This document shows positions 23,758 to 35,310 of a DNA stretch of 64,000 bases, in pieces. The first letter of the stretch is position 1, and every line of letters begins with the position of its first letter. The stretch covers positions 1 to 64,000 of the forward strand of contig NZ_WIAO01000012.1 of assembly GCF_009451885.1 (NCBI RefSeq). The letters are read 5' to 3'. The translations under genes were made by a program, and so were the position numbers. Source of the DNA: Glycomyces albidus. Its GTDB lineage: Bacteria; Actinomycetota; Actinomycetes; Mycobacteriales; Micromonosporaceae. The notes beneath the pieces are model-generated. The model was not told where the DNA came from. It worked only from the letters and a program-made list of their open reading frames with translations, and ran no database searches.

Positions 23758-24543
23758 TCACCTCTGCGGCTGCCGCACCGGGTTGCGCGAACCCGAGCCG
23801 GTGAGCATCCGCCCGATGAGCCCCGCCGGAAGCAGCCGTCCAATCGCGACGATGACCTTGTTCTGCCACCCGGGAACGCTGAGGGCCTTCCCCTTCCGCG
23901 AGTCCCGCAGCGCCGCCGCCGCGACGGCGTCGGCCTCCAGCCACAGGAAGCCGGGCACCCCCGCCATGTTCATGCCCGCGGTCGCATGGAACTCGGTGCG
24001 CGTGAACCCCGGGCACAGCGCCGTCACCGCGACCCCGTGCGGCAGCGTCGTCCTGGCCGTGGACTGGCTGAAGTTGACGACCCACGCCTTGGTCGCCGAG
24101 TACGTCGAGCTGGGGAAGAAGCCGAGCACCGACGCGGTGTTGACGACGCGGCCGCTCCCGCGGGCGATCATCGGCGGCAGGGCCGCGAGCGTCAGCCGGA
24201 GCACGGCCTCGATGTGCAGCCGCGCCATCGCGACCTCGGCCGCCACCGGCGTCTCCAGCAGCTCGGTGGGATGCCCGAACCCGGCGTTGTTCACCAGCAG
24301 GTCGACGCCCTCGCGGCAGCGCGCCTCGATCCGGGCGACCTCGGCCTCCACCGCGAGATCCGCGGTCACCGTCTCGCAGGGGACGGGGAGCGCGTTCGCG
24401 AGCCCGCGCAGGCGCTCCCCGTCGCGGTCCACGAGCACCAGCCGGTACCCGTCCCGCGCGAGGGCTCTGGCGAACGCCGCCCCGATCCCCGCCGCCGCGC
24501 CGGTGACGAGCGCCGTCGGCTGCGGCGGGGACCCCTCTGACAT
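23758..24543 (-). CDS. Short-chain dehydrogenase/reductase
   Basis: 261 residues of the classical SDR type: 'ALVTGAAAGIGAAFARALA' (cofactor loop), 'LLVNNAGFGHPTELLE', Ser in 'NTASVLGFFPSS', and Tyr-Lys in 'TYSATKAWVVNFSQS'. The Arg/Asp pattern after strand 2 ('LVDRDGERL') does not settle NAD against NADP preference. Cytosolic oxidoreductase; substrate unknown. Single gene, transcribed away from the EACC1-caspase pair. Confidence 0.88.
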   Translation of the reverse strand: MSEGSPPQPTALVTGAAAGIGAAFARALARDGYRLVLVDRDGERLRGLANALPVPCETVTADLAVEAEVARIEARCREGVDLLVNNAGFGHPTELLETPVAAEVAMARLHIEAVLRLTLAALPPMIARGSGRVVNTASVLGFFPSSTYSATKAWVVNFSQSTARTTLPHGVAVTALCPGFTRTEFHATAGMNMAGVPGFLWLEADAVAAAALRDSRKGKALSVPGWQNKVIVAIGRLLPAGLIGRMLTGSGSRNPVRQPQR

Positions 24544-24673: not shown

Positions 24674-25051
24674 ATGCCCGACGAACTGGTCATCGAACTC
24701 TCCCCCGGCGAAGGCGTCTCAGCGGCGCGGTTCGACCGGCTCTGCAGTGAGGTGGCGGACGAGGTGCGGAGCGTGCGCGGCCTGGCAGTGGCGTCGCCGC
24801 AAGTGGAGCCCGCACCCGGTTCGAAGGCCGGCCTCGGGCAGGAGATCGGCGTCCTCATCGTCTCGGGCCTGGTGTCCGCCGCGGGACTCAAGGCCATCGC
24901 GGACGTCGTCATCGCCTGCGTGCAGCGCACCACGATCGGGTCGGTGACCGTGCGGCGCGGCGAGACCGAGGTGACCATGACCGGGCTCCACCCCAAGGAC
25001 GTCCCGGGCGAGACGGCGAAACTGGTCAAGGCGCTCGAAGAGGCGCAATGA
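24674..25051 (+). CDS. EACC1 (effector-associated constant component 1) protein
   Basis: 125 residues: 'MPDELVIELSPGEGVSAARF', a helical region, a hydrophobic helix 'EIGVLIVSGLVSAAGLKAIADVV' (in part) that could insert in membrane or pack in a core, and a C-terminal 'VTVRRGETEVTMTGLHP' strand pair. This is the pattern of EACC1 proteins, small constant partners encoded just before peptidase or other effectors in actinobacterial conflict systems. The stop overlaps the next ATG (ATGA), so it and the caspase-ATPase are made together. It probably acts as an adaptor or sensor for that effector; the activating signal is unknown. Confidence 0.75.
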   Translation: MPDELVIELSPGEGVSAARFDRLCSEVADEVRSVRGLAVASPQVEPAPGSKAGLGQEIGVLIVSGLVSAAGLKAIADVVIACVQRTTIGSVTVRRGETEVTMTGLHPKDVPGETAKLVKALEEAQ

Positions 25052-28000
25052 CCAGGAGAGCCCTGCTGGTCGCCAACGACAGCTACCACGACTCCTCCCT
25101 CAACGGACTCATCTCCCCGGAGACCGACGCCGTGGAACTCGGCGAGCTCCTCAAGGACCGGCGCGTCGGCGGGTTCGAGGTCGAGATCCTCGTCAACGAG
25201 TCGAAACTGACCGTCGAGCAGGCCATCGAGCGGCTCTTCGCCGAGGCCCGGCCCGACGACGTGGTGCTCCTCTACTTCTCCGGCCACGGCGTGCGCGACC
25301 GGCGCCGCCGCCTCCACTTCGCGGTGCCGAGGACCGACGTCCTCTCGGGCTTGGCCTCGACTTCGGTGTCGGCGTCCTTCGTCAAGGAGCGCATGGCCGA
25401 CAGCGACGCCGAGGCCGTCGTGGTCCTCCTCGACTGCTGCTACTCGGGACTGTTCACCGAGGACGGGCTCAAGTCGGGCCCGCAACCGGACATGGAGCAG
25501 GAGCTGCAGGACTTCGCCTCCGGCCGCGGCGTCTTCGTCCTCACCGCGACCGACGCGGTCCAGGAGGCGGCGGACGGCGTGCTCGACGCCGAGGGCGCCC
25601 CGGGCCAGTCGGCCTTCACCGCGGCGGTCGTGCACGGGCTGCGCAGCGGCGACGCCGACGTCCGCGGCGTGGGCTCGGTGACCCCCGACGACCTCTGGCA
25701 GTACGTGAGCACCGAGGTCCCCAGTCGCACCGACGGCCGCCAGACCCCCACCCAGTTCGGCCGCCTCGAATCGCCCATCGAACTCGCGCGCGTCGGATCG
25801 GGCGGGCCGAAGCTGTTCCTGGAGACCGGATCGCGGCTGAGCCTCGGACGGCTCACCGGGGAGTTGACCGCGACGCCGCTGCACGGCTTCCGCGCCACCG
25901 CCTGGGAGGGCAGCGGACGCCTCATCGTCCCCATCGGACAGGTCGTGGCCCACGGCGAGCGCAGCGAGACCATGTCGGTGAGCTTCGGACAGCGCGGCGG
26001 GCACATCCTGACCGTCGGCAAGATGGGCGCCGGCAAGAGCTCCCTGCTGCGGACCCTCGCCTGCTCACTCGCGATGACCCACAGCCCCAGCGAGATCGCG
26101 CTCGAATTCCTCGAATCCGGCGCGAACAAGCTCGGCTCCCTGCAAGCCCTCCCGCACGTCCGCAGCGTCGTCGGCGACGACGAGTCCGACGCCGTCACGG
26201 CACTCCTCGACCGGACCGAAGAACTCATCAAGCAGCGCAAGGCGCTGTTCCGCAAGCACGGCCTGGTCTCGACCGAGCACTTCCGCAACAGCCGCGGCAC
26301 CCTTCCCGAAGGGCCGCACCCGGACCTGGTGATCTTCATCGACCAGTGGTCGGACTTCGCCGGCGCGATCCCGAAGTTCGCGGCTCGTATCGAGCGCCTC
26401 ATCAACGTCGGCAGGGAGTTCGGCGTCCACCTCGCGGTCGCGACCCGGCGGCCCCTCGACCTGCCCCGGCCCCTCTTCGAACTCTTCGGCTCCTACATCG
26501 AACTCCGGCTCCCCGACCCCGACGACTCGCTGATCGACCCGGCGCTGTCCCGGCGCCTCCCCGAATCCGAGCCCGGCTGGGCGCTGATGAAGGGCCTCCG
26601 GTTCCGCGTCGCACAGCCGTTCCTCAGCGACGACTCGCCGCTCGAAGAGCCTTACATCGACGGCGCCGCCGAGATCATCGACAGGATCGACCGGGCGTGG
26701 ACGCCGGCGGGACCGGCCGCGCCGGCCGGCCGATGGCCGACGGCCACGTTCGCCGAGCCGGCCGGCCCGGAGGAGACCTCGCCCGACACCAAGGGCATCC
26801 GCCTCGCCGAGGTCCTCGGGTTCGAAGCGACCGAGTTCCGGCCTGGGACCCACTGGAAGGCCAAGCCCGCCGACGACTACCTGCGGGTGCCGATCGGCAT
26901 CGGCGCCTTCGGCCGCGAACCGCTCGCGCTGGACCTGAAAGAGGCGTCGCAAGGCGGCATGGGCCCGCACGGACTGCTGGTCGGCGCCACCGGTTCGGGG
27001 AAGTCGGAGGTGCTCCGCACCATCGTCGGCTCGCTGATCGCCACCCACTCGCCCGACGAGCTGAACCTCGTCCTCGTCGACTTCAAGGGCGGCGCGACCT
27101 TCGCGGCCCTCGACGAGCTGCCGCACGTGTCCGCGGTCATCACCAACCTCGCCGACGAGATGGAACTGGTCGACCGCATGGCCGACGCGCTCGAAGGCGA
27201 ACTGGTGCGCCGCCAGGAGGCCCTCCGGGCCGCCGGGAACTTCGCCAACCGCTGGGTGTACGAGCAGGCGCGCCTGACCGGGCAGCGTCTCGAGCCGATG
27301 CCGTCGCTCCTGGTCGTCGTCGACGAGTTCTCCGAGATGCTCGTGGCCAAACCGGAGTTCATCAACCAGTTCCTTTACATCGGGCGCATCGGCCGCTCGC
27401 TGGGCGTCCACATGCTGCTCGCCACCCAGCGGCTCGGCGACGGCAAGCTGCGGGGCCTGGAGGGGTTCCTGTCGTACCGGTTGGCGCTGCGGACCTTCAC
27501 CCAGCAGGAATCGCGCGCCGCCATCGGCTCGAACGCCGCCTCCGAGCTGCCGCCGGCCCCCGGCCACGGCTACCTCCAGGTCGGGACGCAAGAGCTGGTG
27601 CGATTCCGGGCCGCCTACAGCGGCACGGCGGTGCCCGCGACCGAACCGGGCTCGGGCGAGCCGGTGCGCAGCGAGATCGAAACCCTGGTCGAGCTGTCGA
27701 AAGGCAGAGGGCGCCCGGCTCGGCAGGTCTGGCTGCCACCGCTCGCGGAGCCCCCGAGCCTCGACCTCCTGCTCCCGCGGCTGACGGCCGACCCGGCACG
27801 GGGGCTTTCCCCCGGCGGCGGGGAGAGCTGGAAGTGGCGGCTGCGAGCCGTACTCGGCGAAGAGGACCGGCCCTTCGAGCAGCGCCGCGCTCCGCTCGTC
27901 GCGGACCTCGGCGGGGCCCAGGGGAACGTGGCGGTCGCCGGCGCCGCCCAGACGGGCAAGTCGACGCTGCTGCGGTCGATGATCGGCTCGCTCGCCCTCA

Positions 28001-29448
28001 CCCACACCCCACGCGAAGTGCAGTTCTACTGCCTCGACTTCGGTGGGGGCACCCTCCGCGCGCTCGCGGGCCTGCCCCATGTGGCAGGGGTCTTCGGCCG
28101 TCAGGACGATGAGGGCGTCCGGCGGACCCTCCAGGAGCTCACCGCCATCCTTGACGACCGCGAGACGCACTTCACCGCCAACGGCATCGACTCGATGGCG
28201 TCGTACCGGCGCTTGAAAGCCCAGGGCCGGTTCGCTGACGACCCCTTCGGCGACCTGTTCCTGGTCGTCGACAACTGGATGACGCTGCGCGAGGACTTCG
28301 AGCCGTTCGTGGACCAGGTTCGCGCCATCGGCAACCGCGGCTTGGCCTTCGGCGTGCATGTCGTCGTCACCTGCACCCGCTGGGGTGACATCCGCATGAA
28401 CATGCGCGACATGTTCGGCCTCAAGATCGAGCTGAAGCTCTCGGACAGCATGGAGTCCGAGATCGACCGCAAGGCGGCGGCGAACGTGCCTCCGAATCGG
28501 CCGGGGCGCGGACTGTCGCCGAACAAGCTGCACTTCCTGGCTGCGGTGCCGCGCATCGACTCGATCCGCGACGGCGATGACCTCCAAGCCGGCGTCGAGG
28601 ACCTCGTGTCGCGGGTCCGCGAAGCGTGGCCCGGGAGGCCATGCCCGCCGGTGCGGCTCCTCCCCAAGCGGCTGCCGGTCGCCGATTTCCTCAAGGCGGT
28701 CGACCGGACCCGGCCGGGCATACCGATCGGTCTCGACGAGGCCGGGCTCAAGCCGGTGCACTTGGACTTCGACAAGGACCCGCACCTGCTCGTCTTCGGC
28801 GACTCCGGAAGCGGCAAGACCAACCTGCTGCGGCATCTCGCCCGCGAGATCCGCGACGCCCGCGGCGAGCGGGACGCCAAGATCATCATGGTCGACTACC
28901 GGCGGGGCATGCTCGAGGAGATCGGCGAGCCGACCCTGCTCGACTACGCCATGTCCTCGAGCCAGCTGTTGGGGACCGTCAAGAACTTGAAAGGCCCGAT
29001 GGAGAAGCGCCTGCCGAGCCACGGTGTCACCGCCGTGCAACTGCGCGACAGGTCCTGGTGGACCGGTCCCGACCTGTACCTGCTCGTCGACGACTACGAC
29101 ATCGTGGCGACCAGGCTCAACCCGCTCGCGGACCTGTCCGATCTCATCGCGCACGGCCGCGACATCGGCTTTCACATCGTCGTCGCCCGACGCGCCTCAG
29201 GTGCCGCCCGATCGACGTTCGATCCGGTCGTGAGCCGGGTGAGCGAACTCGAATCTCCCCTTCTGGTCATGTCCGGCAGCCGGGGGCAAGGGGCCCTGTT
29301 CAACAAGGTGCGCCCCAGCCCGCAACCACCCGGGCGGGGGATCCTGCTGCGGCGCATCGAGGGCGAACAGGTGGTGCAGACGGCGCTGCTGCCGCCCAAC
29401 GGCTTCGCCGAGAAATCGCCGGTGCCCGAGGAGTCGGGCGGCTCGTAG
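25048..29448 (+). CDS. Caspase fused to four FtsK/EccC-type ATPase domains
   Basis: 1466 residues. Residues 1-240 are an EACC1-associated caspase-fold peptidase: His80 in 'YFSGHG' and Cys131 in 'LLDCCYSGLF'. Four FtsK/HerA-type ATPase domains follow. Walker A motifs are GKMGAGKS (324-331), GATGSGKS (646-653), GAAQTGKS (965-972) and GDSGSGKT (1251-1258). Walker B pairs are DQ (432), DE (759), DN (1075) and DD (1348). The last three domains resemble EccC D1-D3 of type VII secretion, including 'LVDFKGGATF' after the second P-loop. EccC's two N-terminal membrane helices and stalk are absent and replaced by the caspase plus an extra ATPase. No WXG100 or other ESX gene is nearby. Likely a soluble, ATPase-gated proteolytic effector; the trigger and substrate are unknown. 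Confidence 0.88.
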   Translation: MTRRALLVANDSYHDSSLNGLISPETDAVELGELLKDRRVGGFEVEILVNESKLTVEQAIERLFAEARPDDVVLLYFSGHGVRDRRRRLHFAVPRTDVLSGLASTSVSASFVKERMADSDAEAVVVLLDCCYSGLFTEDGLKSGPQPDMEQELQDFASGRGVFVLTATDAVQEAADGVLDAEGAPGQSAFTAAVVHGLRSGDADVRGVGSVTPDDLWQYVSTEVPSRTDGRQTPTQFGRLESPIELARVGSGGPKLFLETGSRLSLGRLTGELTATPLHGFRATAWEGSGRLIVPIGQVVAHGERSETMSVSFGQRGGHILTVGKMGAGKSSLLRTLACSLAMTHSPSEIALEFLESGANKLGSLQALPHVRSVVGDDESDAVTALLDRTEELIKQRKALFRKHGLVSTEHFRNSRGTLPEGPHPDLVIFIDQWSDFAGAIPKFAARIERLINVGREFGVHLAVATRRPLDLPRPLFELFGSYIELRLPDPDDSLIDPALSRRLPESEPGWALMKGLRFRVAQPFLSDDSPLEEPYIDGAAEIIDRIDRAWTPAGPAAPAGRWPTATFAEPAGPEETSPDTKGIRLAEVLGFEATEFRPGTHWKAKPADDYLRVPIGIGAFGREPLALDLKEASQGGMGPHGLLVGATGSGKSEVLRTIVGSLIATHSPDELNLVLVDFKGGATFAALDELPHVSAVITNLADEMELVDRMADALEGELVRRQEALRAAGNFANRWVYEQARLTGQRLEPMPSLLVVVDEFSEMLVAKPEFINQFLYIGRIGRSLGVHMLLATQRLGDGKLRGLEGFLSYRLALRTFTQQESRAAIGSNAASELPPAPGHGYLQVGTQELVRFRAAYSGTAVPATEPGSGEPVRSEIETLVELSKGRGRPARQVWLPPLAEPPSLDLLLPRLTADPARGLSPGGGESWKWRLRAVLGEEDRPFEQRRAPLVADLGGAQGNVAVAGAAQTGKSTLLRSMIGSLALTHTPREVQFYCLDFGGGTLRALAGLPHVAGVFGRQDDEGVRRTLQELTAILDDRETHFTANGIDSMASYRRLKAQGRFADDPFGDLFLVVDNWMTLREDFEPFVDQVRAIGNRGLAFGVHVVVTCTRWGDIRMNMRDMFGLKIELKLSDSMESEIDRKAAANVPPNRPGRGLSPNKLHFLAAVPRIDSIRDGDDLQAGVEDLVSRVREAWPGRPCPPVRLLPKRLPVADFLKAVDRTRPGIPIGLDEAGLKPVHLDFDKDPHLLVFGDSGSGKTNLLRHLAREIRDARGERDAKIIMVDYRRGMLEEIGEPTLLDYAMSSSQLLGTVKNLKGPMEKRLPSHGVTAVQLRDRSWWTGPDLYLLVDDYDIVATRLNPLADLSDLIAHGRDIGFHIVVARRASGAARSTFDPVVSRVSELESPLLVMSGSRGQGALFNKVRPSPQPPGRGILLRRIEGEQVVQTALLPPNGFAEKSPVPEESGGS

Positions 29449-29482: not shown

Positions 29483-30526
29483 CTACGCCGGCGCGACCGC
29501 GGGCGGGTTGAGCCGTGCGAACCCCGGCTGGCGCTCGTACGGGTAGTACGGGTACGGCGCGGTCTTCGCGCTGGCCTTGTCGAGCCGGGCGATCTGGTCG
29601 GCGTCGAGCTCCCAGCCGACGGCCCCGAGGTTCTGCCTGAGCTGGTCCTCGTCGCGGGCGCCGACGATGACCGAGGCGACGGTGGGGCGGCGCAGCAGCC
29701 AGTTGATCGCGATCTGCGGCACCGACTTCCCGGTCTCGGCGCTGATCTCGTCGAGCGCGTCGACGACGCGGTAGAGCGCCTCGTCCTCGACCGGCGGGCC
29801 GTACTGCGCGGTCTCGTGGAGCCGGCTTCCTTCGGGGACGGGCTGCCCGCGCCGGATCCTCCCGGTGAGCCGGCCCCAGCCGAGCGGGCTCCACGTCAGG
29901 GCCCCGACCCCCTGGTCGATCCCGAGGGGCATGAGCTCCCATTCGTAGTCGCGTCCGACGAGCGAGTAGTACACCTGGTGCGCGGCGAAGCGCGGCAGGC
30001 CGAGGCGGTCGGCGGCGTCGAGGCTCTTCTGGAGCTGCCAGCCGGCGTAGTTCGAGGCGCCGACGTACCGGATCTTCCCGGCCCGCACCAGGTCGTCGAG
30101 GACGGCCAGGGTCTCCTCGACCGGGGTGCCGGCGTCGAAGGCGTGGAGCTGGAACAGGTCGATGTAGTCGGTGCCCAGGCGGCGCAGCGCGGTCTCGACG
30201 GCGCGCACGAGGTGGATCCGCGACGCGCCCGCGTCGTTGGCGCCCTCGCCGATCGGGAGTCCGGCCTTGGTCGAGATCAGCGCCCGGTCCCGGCGCCCTT
30301 TGAGGGCCGCGCCGAGCACTTCCTCGGAGGCGCCGTCGGAGTAGACGTCGGCGGTGTCGAACATGGACATGCCGGCGTCGAGGGCGAGGTCGACCATGCG
30401 GCGGGCCTGTGCGACCCCGGTGTCGCCCCAGGCGCCGAAGAGCGGCCCGGAGCCGCCGAAGGTGCCGGCGCCGAAGGACAGGGCGGGGACGTGGAGGCCG
30501 GAGCGGCCGAGGCGGCGGTGTTCCAT
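29483..30526 (-). CDS. Aldo/keto reductase
   Basis: 347 residues of the AKR TIM-barrel: 'GMSMFDTADVYSDGASEEVLG' (in part, Asp and Tyr of the tetrad), Lys in 'ALISTKAGLP', His in 'YIDLFQLHAFD', and the NADPH-binding 'VGARDEDQLRQNL' near the end. It reduces aldehydes or ketones in the cytosol with NADPH. The divergent TetR gene and the palindrome beside the reductase start point to control by that repressor. Confidence 0.9.
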   Translation of the reverse strand: MEHRRLGRSGLHVPALSFGAGTFGGSGPLFGAWGDTGVAQARRMVDLALDAGMSMFDTADVYSDGASEEVLGAALKGRRDRALISTKAGLPIGEGANDAGASRIHLVRAVETALRRLGTDYIDLFQLHAFDAGTPVEETLAVLDDLVRAGKIRYVGASNYAGWQLQKSLDAADRLGLPRFAAHQVYYSLVGRDYEWELMPLGIDQGVGALTWSPLGWGRLTGRIRRGQPVPEGSRLHETAQYGPPVEDEALYRVVDALDEISAETGKSVPQIAINWLLRRPTVASVIVGARDEDQLRQNLGAVGWELDADQIARLDKASAKTAPYPYYPYERQPGFARLNPPAVAPA

Positions 30527-33052: not shown

Positions 33053-35236
33053 TCACCCCTCGCGCAGCCCGATCCGCCCGTGCAGGCGCCGCAGCGGCGC
33101 CGGCGCCCACCAGTTCGCCCGGCCCGTCAGCCGCATCGCGGCCGGCAGCAGGATCCCGCGGATCACCGTGGCGTCCACGACCACCGCCAGCGCCATGCCC
33201 ACGCCCAGCATCTGCAGGAACACCACGTCCCCGGTCGCGTATACCGCGAACGTGAACGCCAGCACCAGCGCCGCGGCGGTGACCAGCGGCGCCGAGCGCT
33301 GGAGGCCGACCGCGATCGAACCGGTCCGGTCGCCGGTGCGGTCGTACTCCTCCTTGATCCGCGCCAGCATGAACACCTCGTAGTCCATGGAGAGCCCGTA
33401 CGCGATGCAGAACATGAGGATCGGGATGCTCGGCTCGAAGGAGCCCTGCGGGGTGAACCCGATGAGCCCGGACAGGTGCCCGTCCTGGAACACCCACACC
33501 ACGGCCCCGAACATGGCCGCCATGGACAGTCCGTTGAGCACGGTCGCCTTGAGCGGCGCGACCACGCTCCCGGTCATCAGGAACAGCACCGCGAACGTGA
33601 CGAGCACGATCAGGCCGAGCAGCAGCGGCAGCCGTTCGAGCAGCGCGTCCCGGAAGTCCGCGAGGTCGGCCGGGTAGCCGGCCACCGAGGTCGCGAACGG
33701 GGCCTCGACCGCCCGCACGTCCCCGACGATCCCGTACGGGTCCGCCCGCATGGCCTCCACTGTCGGCACCGCCGAGAGCCACGTGTCCGCCCCCTGCCAC
33801 GTGAACCGCCCCGCGTCGGCGTCCGCCGTCAAGCGGCCGTCGACGAACCGGCCCGCGGCCGAATCCACCTGCGCGATGCCGTCCACTTCGGAGAGCTCGG
33901 CGGCGTAGGCCGCGAGCGACGCCTCATCGGCGCCGCCGGCCCGGACCAGCAGCGCGTCCGTCTCCTCCGCCGCGAAGTTCGCCGTGACCTGGTCGGTCGC
34001 GACCCGGCTCGGCGCGTCCTCCGGCAGCGCCCGCTCGTCGGGGACGCCGAAGCGGACCCCCAGCAGCGGCGACGCGAGCACCAGCACCAGGACCAGCGCC
34101 GCCGCGCCCCACAGGACCGGCCGGCGCATGACCGCCGACGCGAGCCGGTACCACCGGCCCTCCGCCACCGGGCGCGGCGCGGCGCGCCGCTGCACCCGGT
34201 GGCCCCAGACCGCAAGGGCTGCAGGCAGGACCACGACCGCGCCGAGCACCGACGCGAGCGGCACCACGATCCCCGCGTACGCGAAGGAACGCAGGAACGG
34301 GAACGGCATGAACAGCAGCACCGAGAGGCTGGCGGCCACCGTCACCGCGGAGAACACCACCGTCCGCCCCGCGCTGGCGACGGTGCGCGCGACCGCTTCG
34401 GCGCGGTCGTGCAGCGCCGACTCCTCCCGGAACCGGCTGACGATGAACAGGCAGTAGTCCACCGCCAGGCCCATGGCCATCACCAGAATGAGGTTGGCCG
34501 CGAATGTGGACATCTCGACCTGGGCTGCGATGAACCGGACGGCCGCCAGCGACACCGCCAGCGCGAACAGCCCCGTCCCGACGGTGAGGAGCGCGGCGAC
34601 CGGGCGGCGGTAGATCGCGATGAGCAGCACCAGGAGCCCGGGGATGACGATCGCCTCGGCGAGCAGGAAGTCCTCGCGGGCGATCTGCGCGGCCTCGCGG
34701 AACAGCTCGTCGGAGCCGCCGATCGCGACCGTGAGCGGACCGCCGGTGCGCTCGAACGCGTCCTTGAGCCGCGGCAGGACTGCTTCCCGGATGTGCGTGA
34801 CGTCGCCCGGGACGTACGCGGTGACGAGCGCCTGCGAGCCGTCTTCGCTGCGGAGGGTCGGCGATCCGCCGTCCCAGTACGAGTGGACCCGCAGGACCTC
34901 GTCGAACCGGGCGAACTCCTCGGTCAGCGCGGCGCCGGCGGCGGCGCTGGCGGGGGAGTCGACGTTCCCGTCCGCGGCGGTGACGACGAGCAGGACGTTC
35001 GCGGAGCCGGTGCCGAAGTCCCGGTGGAGCTCCTGCCCGGTGGTGATCGATTCGGAGCCGGGGACCTGGTAGCGGGAGAGGACGAGCGCGTTCATCGTCC
35101 CGGAGGCGGCGAACGCGGCGGCGATGAGGACGAGCAGCGAGGCGACGAGCACGAATCGCCTGCGGCGGTAGGTGAAGCGGCCGATCCGGTGCAGGAGCGG
35201 GCCGGGTGGCGCGATTGGAGGTGCGGTGGAGGTCAT
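33053..35236 (-). CDS. MMPL-family RND transporter
   Basis: 727 residues with two repeats, each a helix, a large extracytoplasmic loop and five helices. Landmarks: 'LVMAMGLAVDYCLFIVSRFREE' (in part) and 'FCIAYGLSMDYEVFMLARIKEEY' (in part), the paired GLxxDY motifs that carry the proton-relay aspartates. Actinobacterial MMPL proteins export lipids, glycolipids or drugs. ATG 35236 has GGGAGA five bases upstream. A divergent TetR gene with tandem operators indicates inducible control. The substrate is not predictable here. Confidence 0.92.
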   Translation of the reverse strand: MTSTAPPIAPPGPLLHRIGRFTYRRRRFVLVASLLVLIAAAFAASGTMNALVLSRYQVPGSESITTGQELHRDFGTGSANVLLVVTAADGNVDSPASAAAGAALTEEFARFDEVLRVHSYWDGGSPTLRSEDGSQALVTAYVPGDVTHIREAVLPRLKDAFERTGGPLTVAIGGSDELFREAAQIAREDFLLAEAIVIPGLLVLLIAIYRRPVAALLTVGTGLFALAVSLAAVRFIAAQVEMSTFAANLILVMAMGLAVDYCLFIVSRFREESALHDRAEAVARTVASAGRTVVFSAVTVAASLSVLLFMPFPFLRSFAYAGIVVPLASVLGAVVVLPAALAVWGHRVQRRAAPRPVAEGRWYRLASAVMRRPVLWGAAALVLVLVLASPLLGVRFGVPDERALPEDAPSRVATDQVTANFAAEETDALLVRAGGADEASLAAYAAELSEVDGIAQVDSAAGRFVDGRLTADADAGRFTWQGADTWLSAVPTVEAMRADPYGIVGDVRAVEAPFATSVAGYPADLADFRDALLERLPLLLGLIVLVTFAVLFLMTGSVVAPLKATVLNGLSMAAMFGAVVWVFQDGHLSGLIGFTPQGSFEPSIPILMFCIAYGLSMDYEVFMLARIKEEYDRTGDRTGSIAVGLQRSAPLVTAAALVLAFTFAVYATGDVVFLQMLGVGMALAVVVDATVIRGILLPAAMRLTGRANWWAPAPLRRLHGRIGLREG

Positions 35237-35261
35237 GGGGTCTCCCGACCGGCGTAGAGTG

Positions 35262-35310
35262 AAATACGAGTGAGCGCTCGCAATAAAAATACGAGCAACT
35301 ACTCGCATTT
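35262..35310. promoter_or_regulatory. Tandem TetR operators, ACGAG-N6-CTCGC
   Basis: AAATACGAG (35262-35270) with CTCGCAATA (35277-35285), and AAATACGAG (35287-35295) with CTCGCATTT (35302-35310), form two inverted repeats of the same design, 25 bp centre to centre. They fill the 93-bp gap between the MMPL and TetR starts and are AT-rich against the background. Two repressor dimers on one face of DNA is the likely arrangement. Confidence 0.65.

What the first reader, a model, noticed from the sequence alone, without database searches (positions are those of the whole stretch)
24674..29448. EACC1 coupled to a caspase fused to an EccC-like motor
A caspase with visible His80/Cys131 replaces the membrane helices of a type VII secretion ATPase, and an EACC1 gene overlaps its start. 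EACC1 proteins are partners of effectors in actinobacterial conflict systems. No ESX substrate or membrane component is near. I infer a death or defence effector in which ATPase domains sense or thread a peptide or DNA and release the protease. The fusion may be undescribed as a working system.
Basis: partly seen in the sequence, partly recalled or inferred. Interest (0 to 1): 0.92.

Follow-up and report, generated by a model that had tools for sequence, protein, structure and literature searches.

The report
Caspase guard built from secretion motor
Some actinobacteria carry a caspase-type protease joined to a version of the type VII secretion motor, here closest to the cell's own motor and nearly always paired with a small partner gene; the motor part is predicted to act as a sensor that would switch the protease on, much as plant immune receptors carry decoys of the parts they guard.

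Summary
Confirmed and extended. A 125-aa EACC1-family gene (24674-25051) overlaps by 4 bp a 1466-aa gene (25048-29448): caspase (His80/Cys131), an extra D2-like ATPase domain (D0, intact P-loop, where EccC has membrane helices, stalk and DUF), then EccC D1-D2-D3. EACC1-caspase pairs are published (Kaur 2020); the EccC form was not in the text I read. It recurs in 51 loci of ten named genera, EACC1 upstream in 50; caspase His/Cys and D0 Walker lysine are invariant in 47 of 47 aligned rows. The host has a separate ESX locus with its own EccC. Main new result: caspase-D0 behaves as one family, D1-D3 does not (one clade rejected, p 5e-55). D1-D3 groups with EccC of the same genus or genome; three genomes show identical same-genome DNA tracts of 134-364 nt, read as gene conversion. 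D1-D3 changes faster than caspase-D0, D1 catalytic residues are lost in some copies, and the most variable D3 stretch is the substrate-signal helix. Best reading: a caspase whose sensor is a borrowed ESX motor, an integrated-decoy-like guard. What it senses and cuts is inferred.

The parts
24674..25051 (+). EACC1-family gene (125 aa), 5' member of the pair
   Evidence: family shown
25048..25051 (+). 4-bp ATGA stop/start overlap (translational coupling likely)
   Evidence: sequence
25048..29448 (+). Caspase - D0 - EccC(D1-D2-D3) fusion, 1466 aa
25054..25755 (+). Caspase (peptidase C14) domain, aa 3-236
   Evidence: PF00656 and NF047832; fold near MALT1 paracaspase
25285..25287 (+). Catalytic His80
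25438..25440 (+). Catalytic Cys131 (DCCYSG)
25795..26607 (+). D0: extra FtsK/EccC-D2-like domain with intact Walker A (GKMGAGKS), aa 250-520; not the EccC DUF
26635..26682 (+). Mosaic breakpoint (aa about 530-545): 60-residue blocks 90-100% identical to P0004 before it, 52-93% after
26845..27627 (+). D1, EccC ATPase1-like, K652/D759/E760 intact here, aa 600-860
27685..28617 (+). D2, EccC ATPase2-like, aa 880-1190
28630..29385 (+). D3, EccC ATPase3-like (substrate-signal domain), aa 1195-1446
28948..29019 (+). D3 signal-recognition helix, aa 1301-1324; most variable stretch of D3 between close fusions
   Evidence: pocket location from PMC6954902 (passages)

Best explanation
The two genes encode an EACC1-family partner and a caspase joined to four EccC-type ATPase domains, the last three closest to the motor of the cell's own ESX (type VII) secretion system; the unit is predicted to use that borrowed motor as a sensor and would fire the caspase when it is engaged. 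Shown: the parts, the recurring pair, invariant caspase and D0 residues, D1-D3 grouping with the EccC of the same genus or genome, identical same-genome tracts in three hosts (read as gene conversion), and faster change in D1-D3 than in caspase-D0. Inferred: D1-D3, and above all the D3 pocket that in true EccC binds the C-terminal tail of WXG100 substrates, binds an ESX-type signal peptide or a factor that targets EccC. D0 then acts as the nucleotide switch. EccC-style oligomerisation brings caspases together (induced proximity), and the caspase cuts itself and/or cell proteins, stopping the infected or intoxicated cell. EACC1 is taken as the constant regulator of the caspase. Repeated refreshing of D1-D3 from the resident EccC would keep the sensor matched to the guarded machine, as in plant NLRs with integrated decoys (analogy from general knowledge).
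For: Recurrence: 51 loci, EACC1 upstream in 50. Constant part: the caspase of 21 fusions lies on one side of a branch against 29 other related caspases (support 93, below the tool's 95 star); D0 likewise against 45 D1/D2/D3 rows (support 91). Borrowed part: D1-D3 of 20 fusions among 25 EccC needs at least 10 label changes; one clade rejected, dlnL 2152, p-AU 5e-55 (rows picked by me from the 32 and 68). Window D1/D2/D3 are 77/79/70% identical to the genome's own EccC, its nearest of 68. Conversion: longest exact same-genome runs 364, 191 and 134 nt against 50, 52 and 71 nt for the best other-genome EccC in three genomes, inside less identical flanks. Sensor-like change: D1-D3 less conserved than caspase-D0 in 138 of 142 close pairs (not independent); dN/dS higher in D1-D3 in 12 of 14 pairs, all below 1; D3 helix 95 of 286 sites differ against 477 of 2503 elsewhere in D3 for fusions, and 21 of 192 against 227 of 1694 for EccC. 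Motor not required: D1 K652/D759/E760 kept in 44/36/40 of 47, but H80, C131, D0 K330 and D432 in 47 of 47; EccC keeps the three D1 residues in 17 of 17. Hosts have ESX: EccB in 25 of 25 genomes searched, EccC in 24 of 25 (26 of 51 loci asked, one genome not held). Patchy: 8 of 101 sampled family genomes, 3 of 6 of the genus.
Against: Nothing here shows that it senses anything or that the caspase is active. The helix window was chosen after seeing the 25-residue table, and the ten pocket residues alone are not significantly enriched (30 of 119 against 542 of 2670, p 0.20). Same-genome EccC is the nearest of 68 EccC for only 9 of 24 fusions, and the exact-run excess holds for 6 of 24. The Nocardia and Streptomyces copies tested share no same-genome run over 30 nt. 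Gene conversion between paralogues can be neutral. Faster change could be relaxed constraint. The one-family support for caspase and D0 is below the tool's mark. ESX is common in these taxa, so 25 of 25 has little weight. No defence neighbours were identified: no third gene recurs in place.
Confidence: 0.42

Rival explanations
1. Effector reading (Kaur 2020 logic): EACC1 senses, the caspase autoprocesses, and the freed D1-D3 fragment is the effector, a dominant-negative EccC that would poison the resident ESX motor by mixed hexamers.
For: Kaur et al. read the variable C-terminal domains as effectors deployed via autoproteolysis (PMC7159879 section 33, read). D1-D3 matches the resident motor closely in several genomes, as a dominant negative would need; some copies have lost D1 catalytic residues.
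Against: Most copies, the window's included, keep the D1 catalytic residues. Within D3 the largest excess of change over EccC is at the signal helix. No advantage of shutting ESX is known to me.
Confidence: 0.2
2. ESX accessory protease: the fusion is a soluble motor-like adaptor that picks up ESX substrates and cuts them before or during export.
For: The D3 pocket of the window protein matches the genome's own EccC at 9 of 10 positions; the ESX substrate P0090 carries a Tyr-x-x-x-Glu motif near its C-terminus (motif from PMC6954902 passages).
Against: Not in the ESX locus here, and comparing coordinates no EccB lies within 40 kb of the fusion in the 25 genomes (contig ends could hide some). 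Sporadic (8 of 101 sampled family genomes); faster sequence change than EccC; paired instead with EACC1.
Confidence: 0.13
3. DNA- or phage-sensing caspase: the FtsK-family domains bind invading DNA or a phage packaging or portal complex, and the likeness to ESX is only descent plus neutral paralogue conversion.
For: Pfam finds FtsK/SpoIIIE domains; the caspase-D0 model also matches FtsK motors in fold; conversion between paralogues can be neutral (general knowledge).
Against: D1-D3 are EccC-like (TIGR03925, 993 bits, against 55 bits for the FtsK model NF007615), and repeated drawing from EccC rather than FtsK is unexplained.
Confidence: 0.15
4. Domain shuffling without a working system: a recombination-prone EccC paralogue carrying a caspase, under weak constraint.
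For: Four of 51 loci are interrupted (L030, L033, L067, L069) and 8 more run off contigs; faster change in D1-D3.
Against: 39 of 51 are complete; dN/dS below 1 throughout (0.03-0.41 for caspase-D0, 0.11-0.63 for D1-D3); invariant catalytic and D0 residues; EACC1 retained in 50 of 51.
Confidence: 0.1

Closest known systems
EACC1-caspase two-gene conflict system (System 4 of Kaur, Burroughs, Iyer and Aravind 2020, eLife, PMC7159879)
   Same: 5' EACC1 gene, 3' gene with N-terminal caspase of the NF047832 type and a large C-terminal module; actinobacteria
   Different: C-terminal module is D0 plus an EccC motor, not named in the section read (supplementary tables not available). The published C-terminus varies by domain type; here it also varies by recombination with a resident secretion motor. 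The predicted EACC1 fold is soluble ferredoxin-like, not a TM helix
EccC/EssC, the ESX (type VII) secretion ATPase
   Same: D1-D2-D3 order and sequence, 70-79% identical to the host's own EccC
   Different: No TM helices, stalk or DUF; extra nucleotide-binding D0; N-terminal caspase; outside the ESX locus; D1 catalytic residues not always kept
MALT1 paracaspase / apoptosome-type caspase activation by NTPase assemblies
   Same: Best solved caspase matches of the model are MALT1; caspase carried on NTPase domains of an oligomer-forming family
   Different: NTPase is an FtsK/EccC motor rather than a STAND NTPase; activation by proximity only inferred
Plant NLR receptors with integrated decoys (general knowledge)
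   Same: Signalling enzyme fused to a copy of a guarded component, fast-evolving
   Different: Analogy only; bacterial, unrelated proteins, no ligand known

Membership tests
EACC1-caspase two-gene system (Kaur 2020) | 3' gene with N-terminal caspase of the EACC1-associated subfamily | tested here: met
   NF047832 161.4 bits over cut-off 140
EACC1-caspase two-gene system (Kaur 2020) | 5' gene of the EACC1 family | tested here: met
   HMM from fusion-linked partners hits the upstream ORF of 12 of 29 other related caspase loci at E<1e-3 (19 of 29 had a qualifying ORF); of 748 random ORFs two hits, both lying just upstream of the caspase in L022 and L075. No public EACC1 model matched in Pfam or NCBIfam
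EACC1-caspase two-gene system (Kaur 2020) | EACC1 contains a single TM helix | tested here: inconclusive
EACC1-caspase two-gene system (Kaur 2020) | Variable C-terminal module after a constant caspase | tested here: met
   Caspase-D0 constant, D1-D3 variable and recombining
Peptidase C14 (caspase) | PF00656 match and His/Cys dyad | tested here: met
   fold
Peptidase C14 (caspase) | Proteolytic activity | not testable with these tools
   needs an assay
ESX EccC secretion ATPase | Three C-terminal FtsK domains D1-D3 | tested here: met
ESX EccC secretion ATPase | N-terminal TM helices, stalk and degenerate DUF | tested here: not met
   No 19-residue segment above hydropathy 1.23 in the window fusion (own EccC 1.86 and 1.45 near its N-terminus; 29 related fusions 1.11-1.75); caspase and D0 stand there instead
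ESX EccC secretion ATPase | Encoded with EccB/EccD/WXG100 | tested here: not met
   those genes lie on other contigs, the ESX ones with their own EccC

The most novel reading that the evidence does not exclude
A bacterial 'integrated decoy' immune receptor: a caspase that has taken the substrate-reading half of its host's own type VII secretion motor as bait, keeps it matched by gene conversion with the live motor, and kills or arrests the cell when a phage, a competitor's effector or a rogue ESX substrate engages that bait.
Probability: 0.27. Interest if true: 0.92.

Novelty: new variant of a known kind. Interest (0 to 1): 0.72.

Why it matters
EACC1-caspase systems were reported in hundreds of organisms (671 in Table 1 of PMC7159879, passage) but I saw no trigger named for them in the text read. 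Here the variable module points to one: the ESX secretion motor or its signals. That makes the trigger question testable with a defined ligand (WXG100 tails) and a defined output (Cys131 proteolysis). It would also be a bacterial counterpart of integrated-decoy immunity, with exchange with the guarded machine visible in sequence, and it suggests that ESX is itself a target worth guarding. On the practical side, many of these proteins carry the database name 'type VII secretion protein EccCb', which is misleading.

Tried and rejected
A third conserved gene: clustering of flank ORFs over 51 loci plus the window gave no positionally conserved neighbour; the widest family (15 loci, 8 genus labels) is scattered on both strands and was not identified. 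D0 as the EccC DUF: rejected (alignment score 53 against DUF, 277 against D2; fold). EACC1 in Pfam, NCBIfam, PADLOC or PDB sequences: no match (the PDB rows at E 0.22 or worse are taken as chance). Best PADLOC hits of the fusion (mad8, SspH, HerA, and a caspase model) are read as shared FtsK/HerA and caspase folds, not membership. Mobile carriage: 46 plasmid and 13 phage records matched in part, none over 80% of caspase-D0. Pocket-specific selection on ten residues: not significant. Literature: searches of the held PMC library listed no paper describing the caspase-EccC fusion. I read section 33 and passages of PMC7159879, and passages of PMC8195603, PMC6954902 and PMC11154593; the rest only as search listings. 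Supplementary tables of Kaur 2020 could not be opened, so the fusion may be listed there.

Rows dropped: P0003 (the window's own record) from the family alignment; the other 34 of 36 Pfam families and most NCBIfam rows for the fusion are taken as P-loop cross-hits. One search used 32 fusions and 68 EccC; searches used 20 (with 25 EccC) and 21 of those 32 fusions, picked by me for speed, with divergent L058 left out. Searches used 46 of 51 loci plus the window (caspase score over 450); 59 used these plus P0004. Duplicates of the same gene fetched twice and one EccC fragment (L188) were left out. Close pairs for rates and the EccC pairs set against them were chosen by me; L064/L066 gave no D3 sites. 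EACC1-like hits: L049 was missed and found, its frame staying open past the fusion start I had assigned. Solihabitans (L062) was not held for the genome search.
Full report
WHAT IS THERE. On the + strand a 125-codon ORF (24674-25051) ends in ATGA, which starts a 1466-codon ORF (25048-29448). The second protein is a caspase (aa 3-236; PF00656 and NF047832 'caspase, EACC1-associated type', both over their cut-offs), then four FtsK-type domains. The last three are EccC D1-D2-D3 (TIGR03925, 992.8 bits; PDB 4NH0/4N1A). The first (D0, aa 250-520) is not the EccC DUF. It is nearer to D2 by sequence (alignment score 277 against 53 for the DUF) and by fold (4N1A and 9JV8, rmsd 1.9 and 1.7 over 261 and 236 columns), and it has an intact Walker A with a Walker B lacking the glutamate. 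The published DUFs have no P-loop (PMC11154593, passages). The AlphaFold2 model of caspase-D0 (pLDDT 81.7) matches MALT1 paracaspase for the caspase part. The window fusion has no 19-residue segment over hydropathy 1.23, while the genome's own EccC has two hydrophobic segments near its N-terminus (1.86 and 1.45).

HOST AND ESX. The window lies in a 5.76-Mb, 88-contig genome. Two sampled genomes of the same genus carry the fusion at the record positions of the Glycomyces tenuis and G. arizonensis loci, so the host is taken as a Glycomyces species. It has one EccB, one EccD and a WXG100 pair, all on contig C45 beside a full EccC of 1346 aa. Two weaker WXG100 matches lie on C41 and C78. The fusion is therefore an extra EccC-like protein, without evident TM helices, away from ESX.

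RECURRENCE. A protein search found 29 other fusion proteins (P0004-P0032; three look partial), where named called 'type VII secretion protein EccCb', FtsK/SpoIIIE-type ATPase, caspase family protein or EACC1-associated caspase. The genome scan returned the best 80 of 423 relatives; 51 of these 80 (L020-L070) match caspase plus D0 (L046 cut by its contig end) and 29 the caspase alone. Genera: Glycomyces, Micromonospora, Nocardia, Streptomyces, Saccharopolyspora, Amycolatopsis, Saccharothrix, Actinokineospora, Goodfellowiella, Solihabitans, plus one unplaced Micromonosporaceae. EACC1 stands directly upstream in 50 of 51: 49, and L049 recovered; none was found at L044. 39 of 51 fusion ORFs are complete, 8 run off the contig and 4 are interrupted. 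No third gene is conserved in place. In a sample of the family 8 of 101 genomes have it, 3 of 6 in the genus. In a phylum sample 5 of 396 genomes matched, but only 2, the own genome included, over the whole caspase-D0 query.

THE MOTOR HALF IS BORROWED. In a tree of 20 fusion and 25 EccC D1-D3 sequences the fusion label needs at least 10 changes and a single fusion clade is rejected (dlnL 2152, p-AU 5e-55). Glycomyces fusions sit with Glycomyces EccC, Micromonospora fusions with one Micromonospora EccC type out of several, Streptomyces and Nocardia fusions with EccC of their own genus, and three Pseudonocardiaceae fusions with the EccC of the same genome (two as supported pairs, one in a supported set of four). 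The strongly divergent L058 stands apart. The caspase of 21 fusions forms one side of a branch against 29 other related caspases, and D0 one side against 45 D1/D2/D3 rows, with support 93 and 91, below the tool's 95 mark. So one caspase-D0 module appears to carry motors of several origins. The junction is visible: window and P0004 are 90-100% identical per 60-residue block up to about residue 530, then 52-93%.

HOW. In Saccharothrix deserti, Goodfellowiella and Micromonospora lupini the fusion and the same genome's EccC share exact runs of 364, 191 and 134 nt, against 50, 52 and 71 nt with the best EccC of any other genome in the set, and these runs lie in less similar flanks. I read that as gene conversion after the fusion existed. 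It is not universal: the same-genome run exceeds all others in 6 of 24 fusions (58 against 35 nt in the window), and same-genome EccC is the nearest of 68 in 9 of 24. The Nocardia and Streptomyces copies tested have no same-genome run over 30 nt, and three Nocardia rows are long-branched.

HOW IT CHANGES. Among 48 fusion proteins, D1-D3 is less conserved than caspase-D0 in 138 of 142 pairs with 65-99.5% N-terminal identity, but in only 324 of 985 more distant pairs. dN/dS is higher in D1-D3 in 12 of 14 close pairs, and D1-D3 is less conserved than in EccC of the same genomes in 8 of 8 genome pairs set side by side. The pairs share members and are not independent. In D3 the stretch 1301-1324, which by alignment to M. 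tuberculosis EccCb1 (pocket residues from PMC6954902, passages) is the helix lining the substrate-signal pocket, differs at 95 of 286 compared sites against 477 of 2503 in the rest of D3. In EccC pairs it is 21 of 192 against 227 of 1694. I chose the stretch after seeing the profile, and ten pocket residues alone are not significant. In the window protein the pocket still matches the own EccC at 9 of 10 positions. Meanwhile His80, Cys131, D0 Lys330 and D0 Asp432 are invariant in 47 of 47 aligned fusions, while the D1 catalytic set is lost in some (K 44, D 36, E 40 of 47; EccC 17 of 17). A secretion motor should not tolerate that; a sensor could.

MECHANISM. The most economical reading is a caspase switch whose sensor is the ESX motor's own substrate-reading module, with D0 as the nucleotide switch and EACC1 as the constant regulator. 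Steps shown: anatomy, linkage, recombination, rates. Steps inferred: ligand, oligomerisation, activation, target, benefit. The passages read (PMC6954902, PMC11154593) support D3 tail binding, linker autoinhibition and hexamer models for EccC; that substrates drive EccC multimerisation is recalled from Rosenberg 2015, not read here. The effector, accessory-protease and DNA-sensing rivals remain open.

NOVELTY. The EACC1-caspase pair is known; the caspase-D0-EccC form, its distribution and its recombination with the resident ESX motor were not found in print in the searches listed under Tried and rejected. The full domain tables of Kaur 2020 could not be opened. I file it as a new variant of a known kind.

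Noticed in passing
window 24674-25051 and relatives (A2): The EACC1 partner, published as a single-TM membrane sensor, is predicted as a soluble ferredoxin-like fold; if right, the membrane-sensor model of EACC1 systems needs revision.
   Followed up: partly
G000:C2:83770-84360 (L002) and G000:C11:77026-77646 (L003): Two further caspase-domain genes in the same genome, in open frames of 893 and 625 codons; ORFs listed, partners not examined.
   Followed up: no
G000:C41:33007-33198 (L016) and G000:C78:117845-118087 (L017): Two longer open frames (454 and 472 codons) with WXG100-like matches away from the ESX locus, possible ESX toxins or substrates.
   Followed up: no
L030, L033, L067, L069: Interrupted copies of the fusion ORF in Nocardia, Micromonospora and Streptomyces, suggesting gain and loss.
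   Followed up: no
window 33056-35308 (-), 29486-30526 (-), 23761-24543 (-): Nearby genes with Pfam matches are ordinary: MMPL transporter, aldo/keto reductase, short-chain dehydrogenase; six other ORFs tried had no match.
   Followed up: partly
L073, L079, L088: Related caspases without EccC occur in a methanogen (L073), a Contendobacter MAG (L079) and a Chloroflexi MAG (L088), with EACC1-like upstream ORFs in L073 and L079, wider than 'actinobacteria and sporadically proteobacteria' (PMC7159879 section 33).
   Followed up: partly
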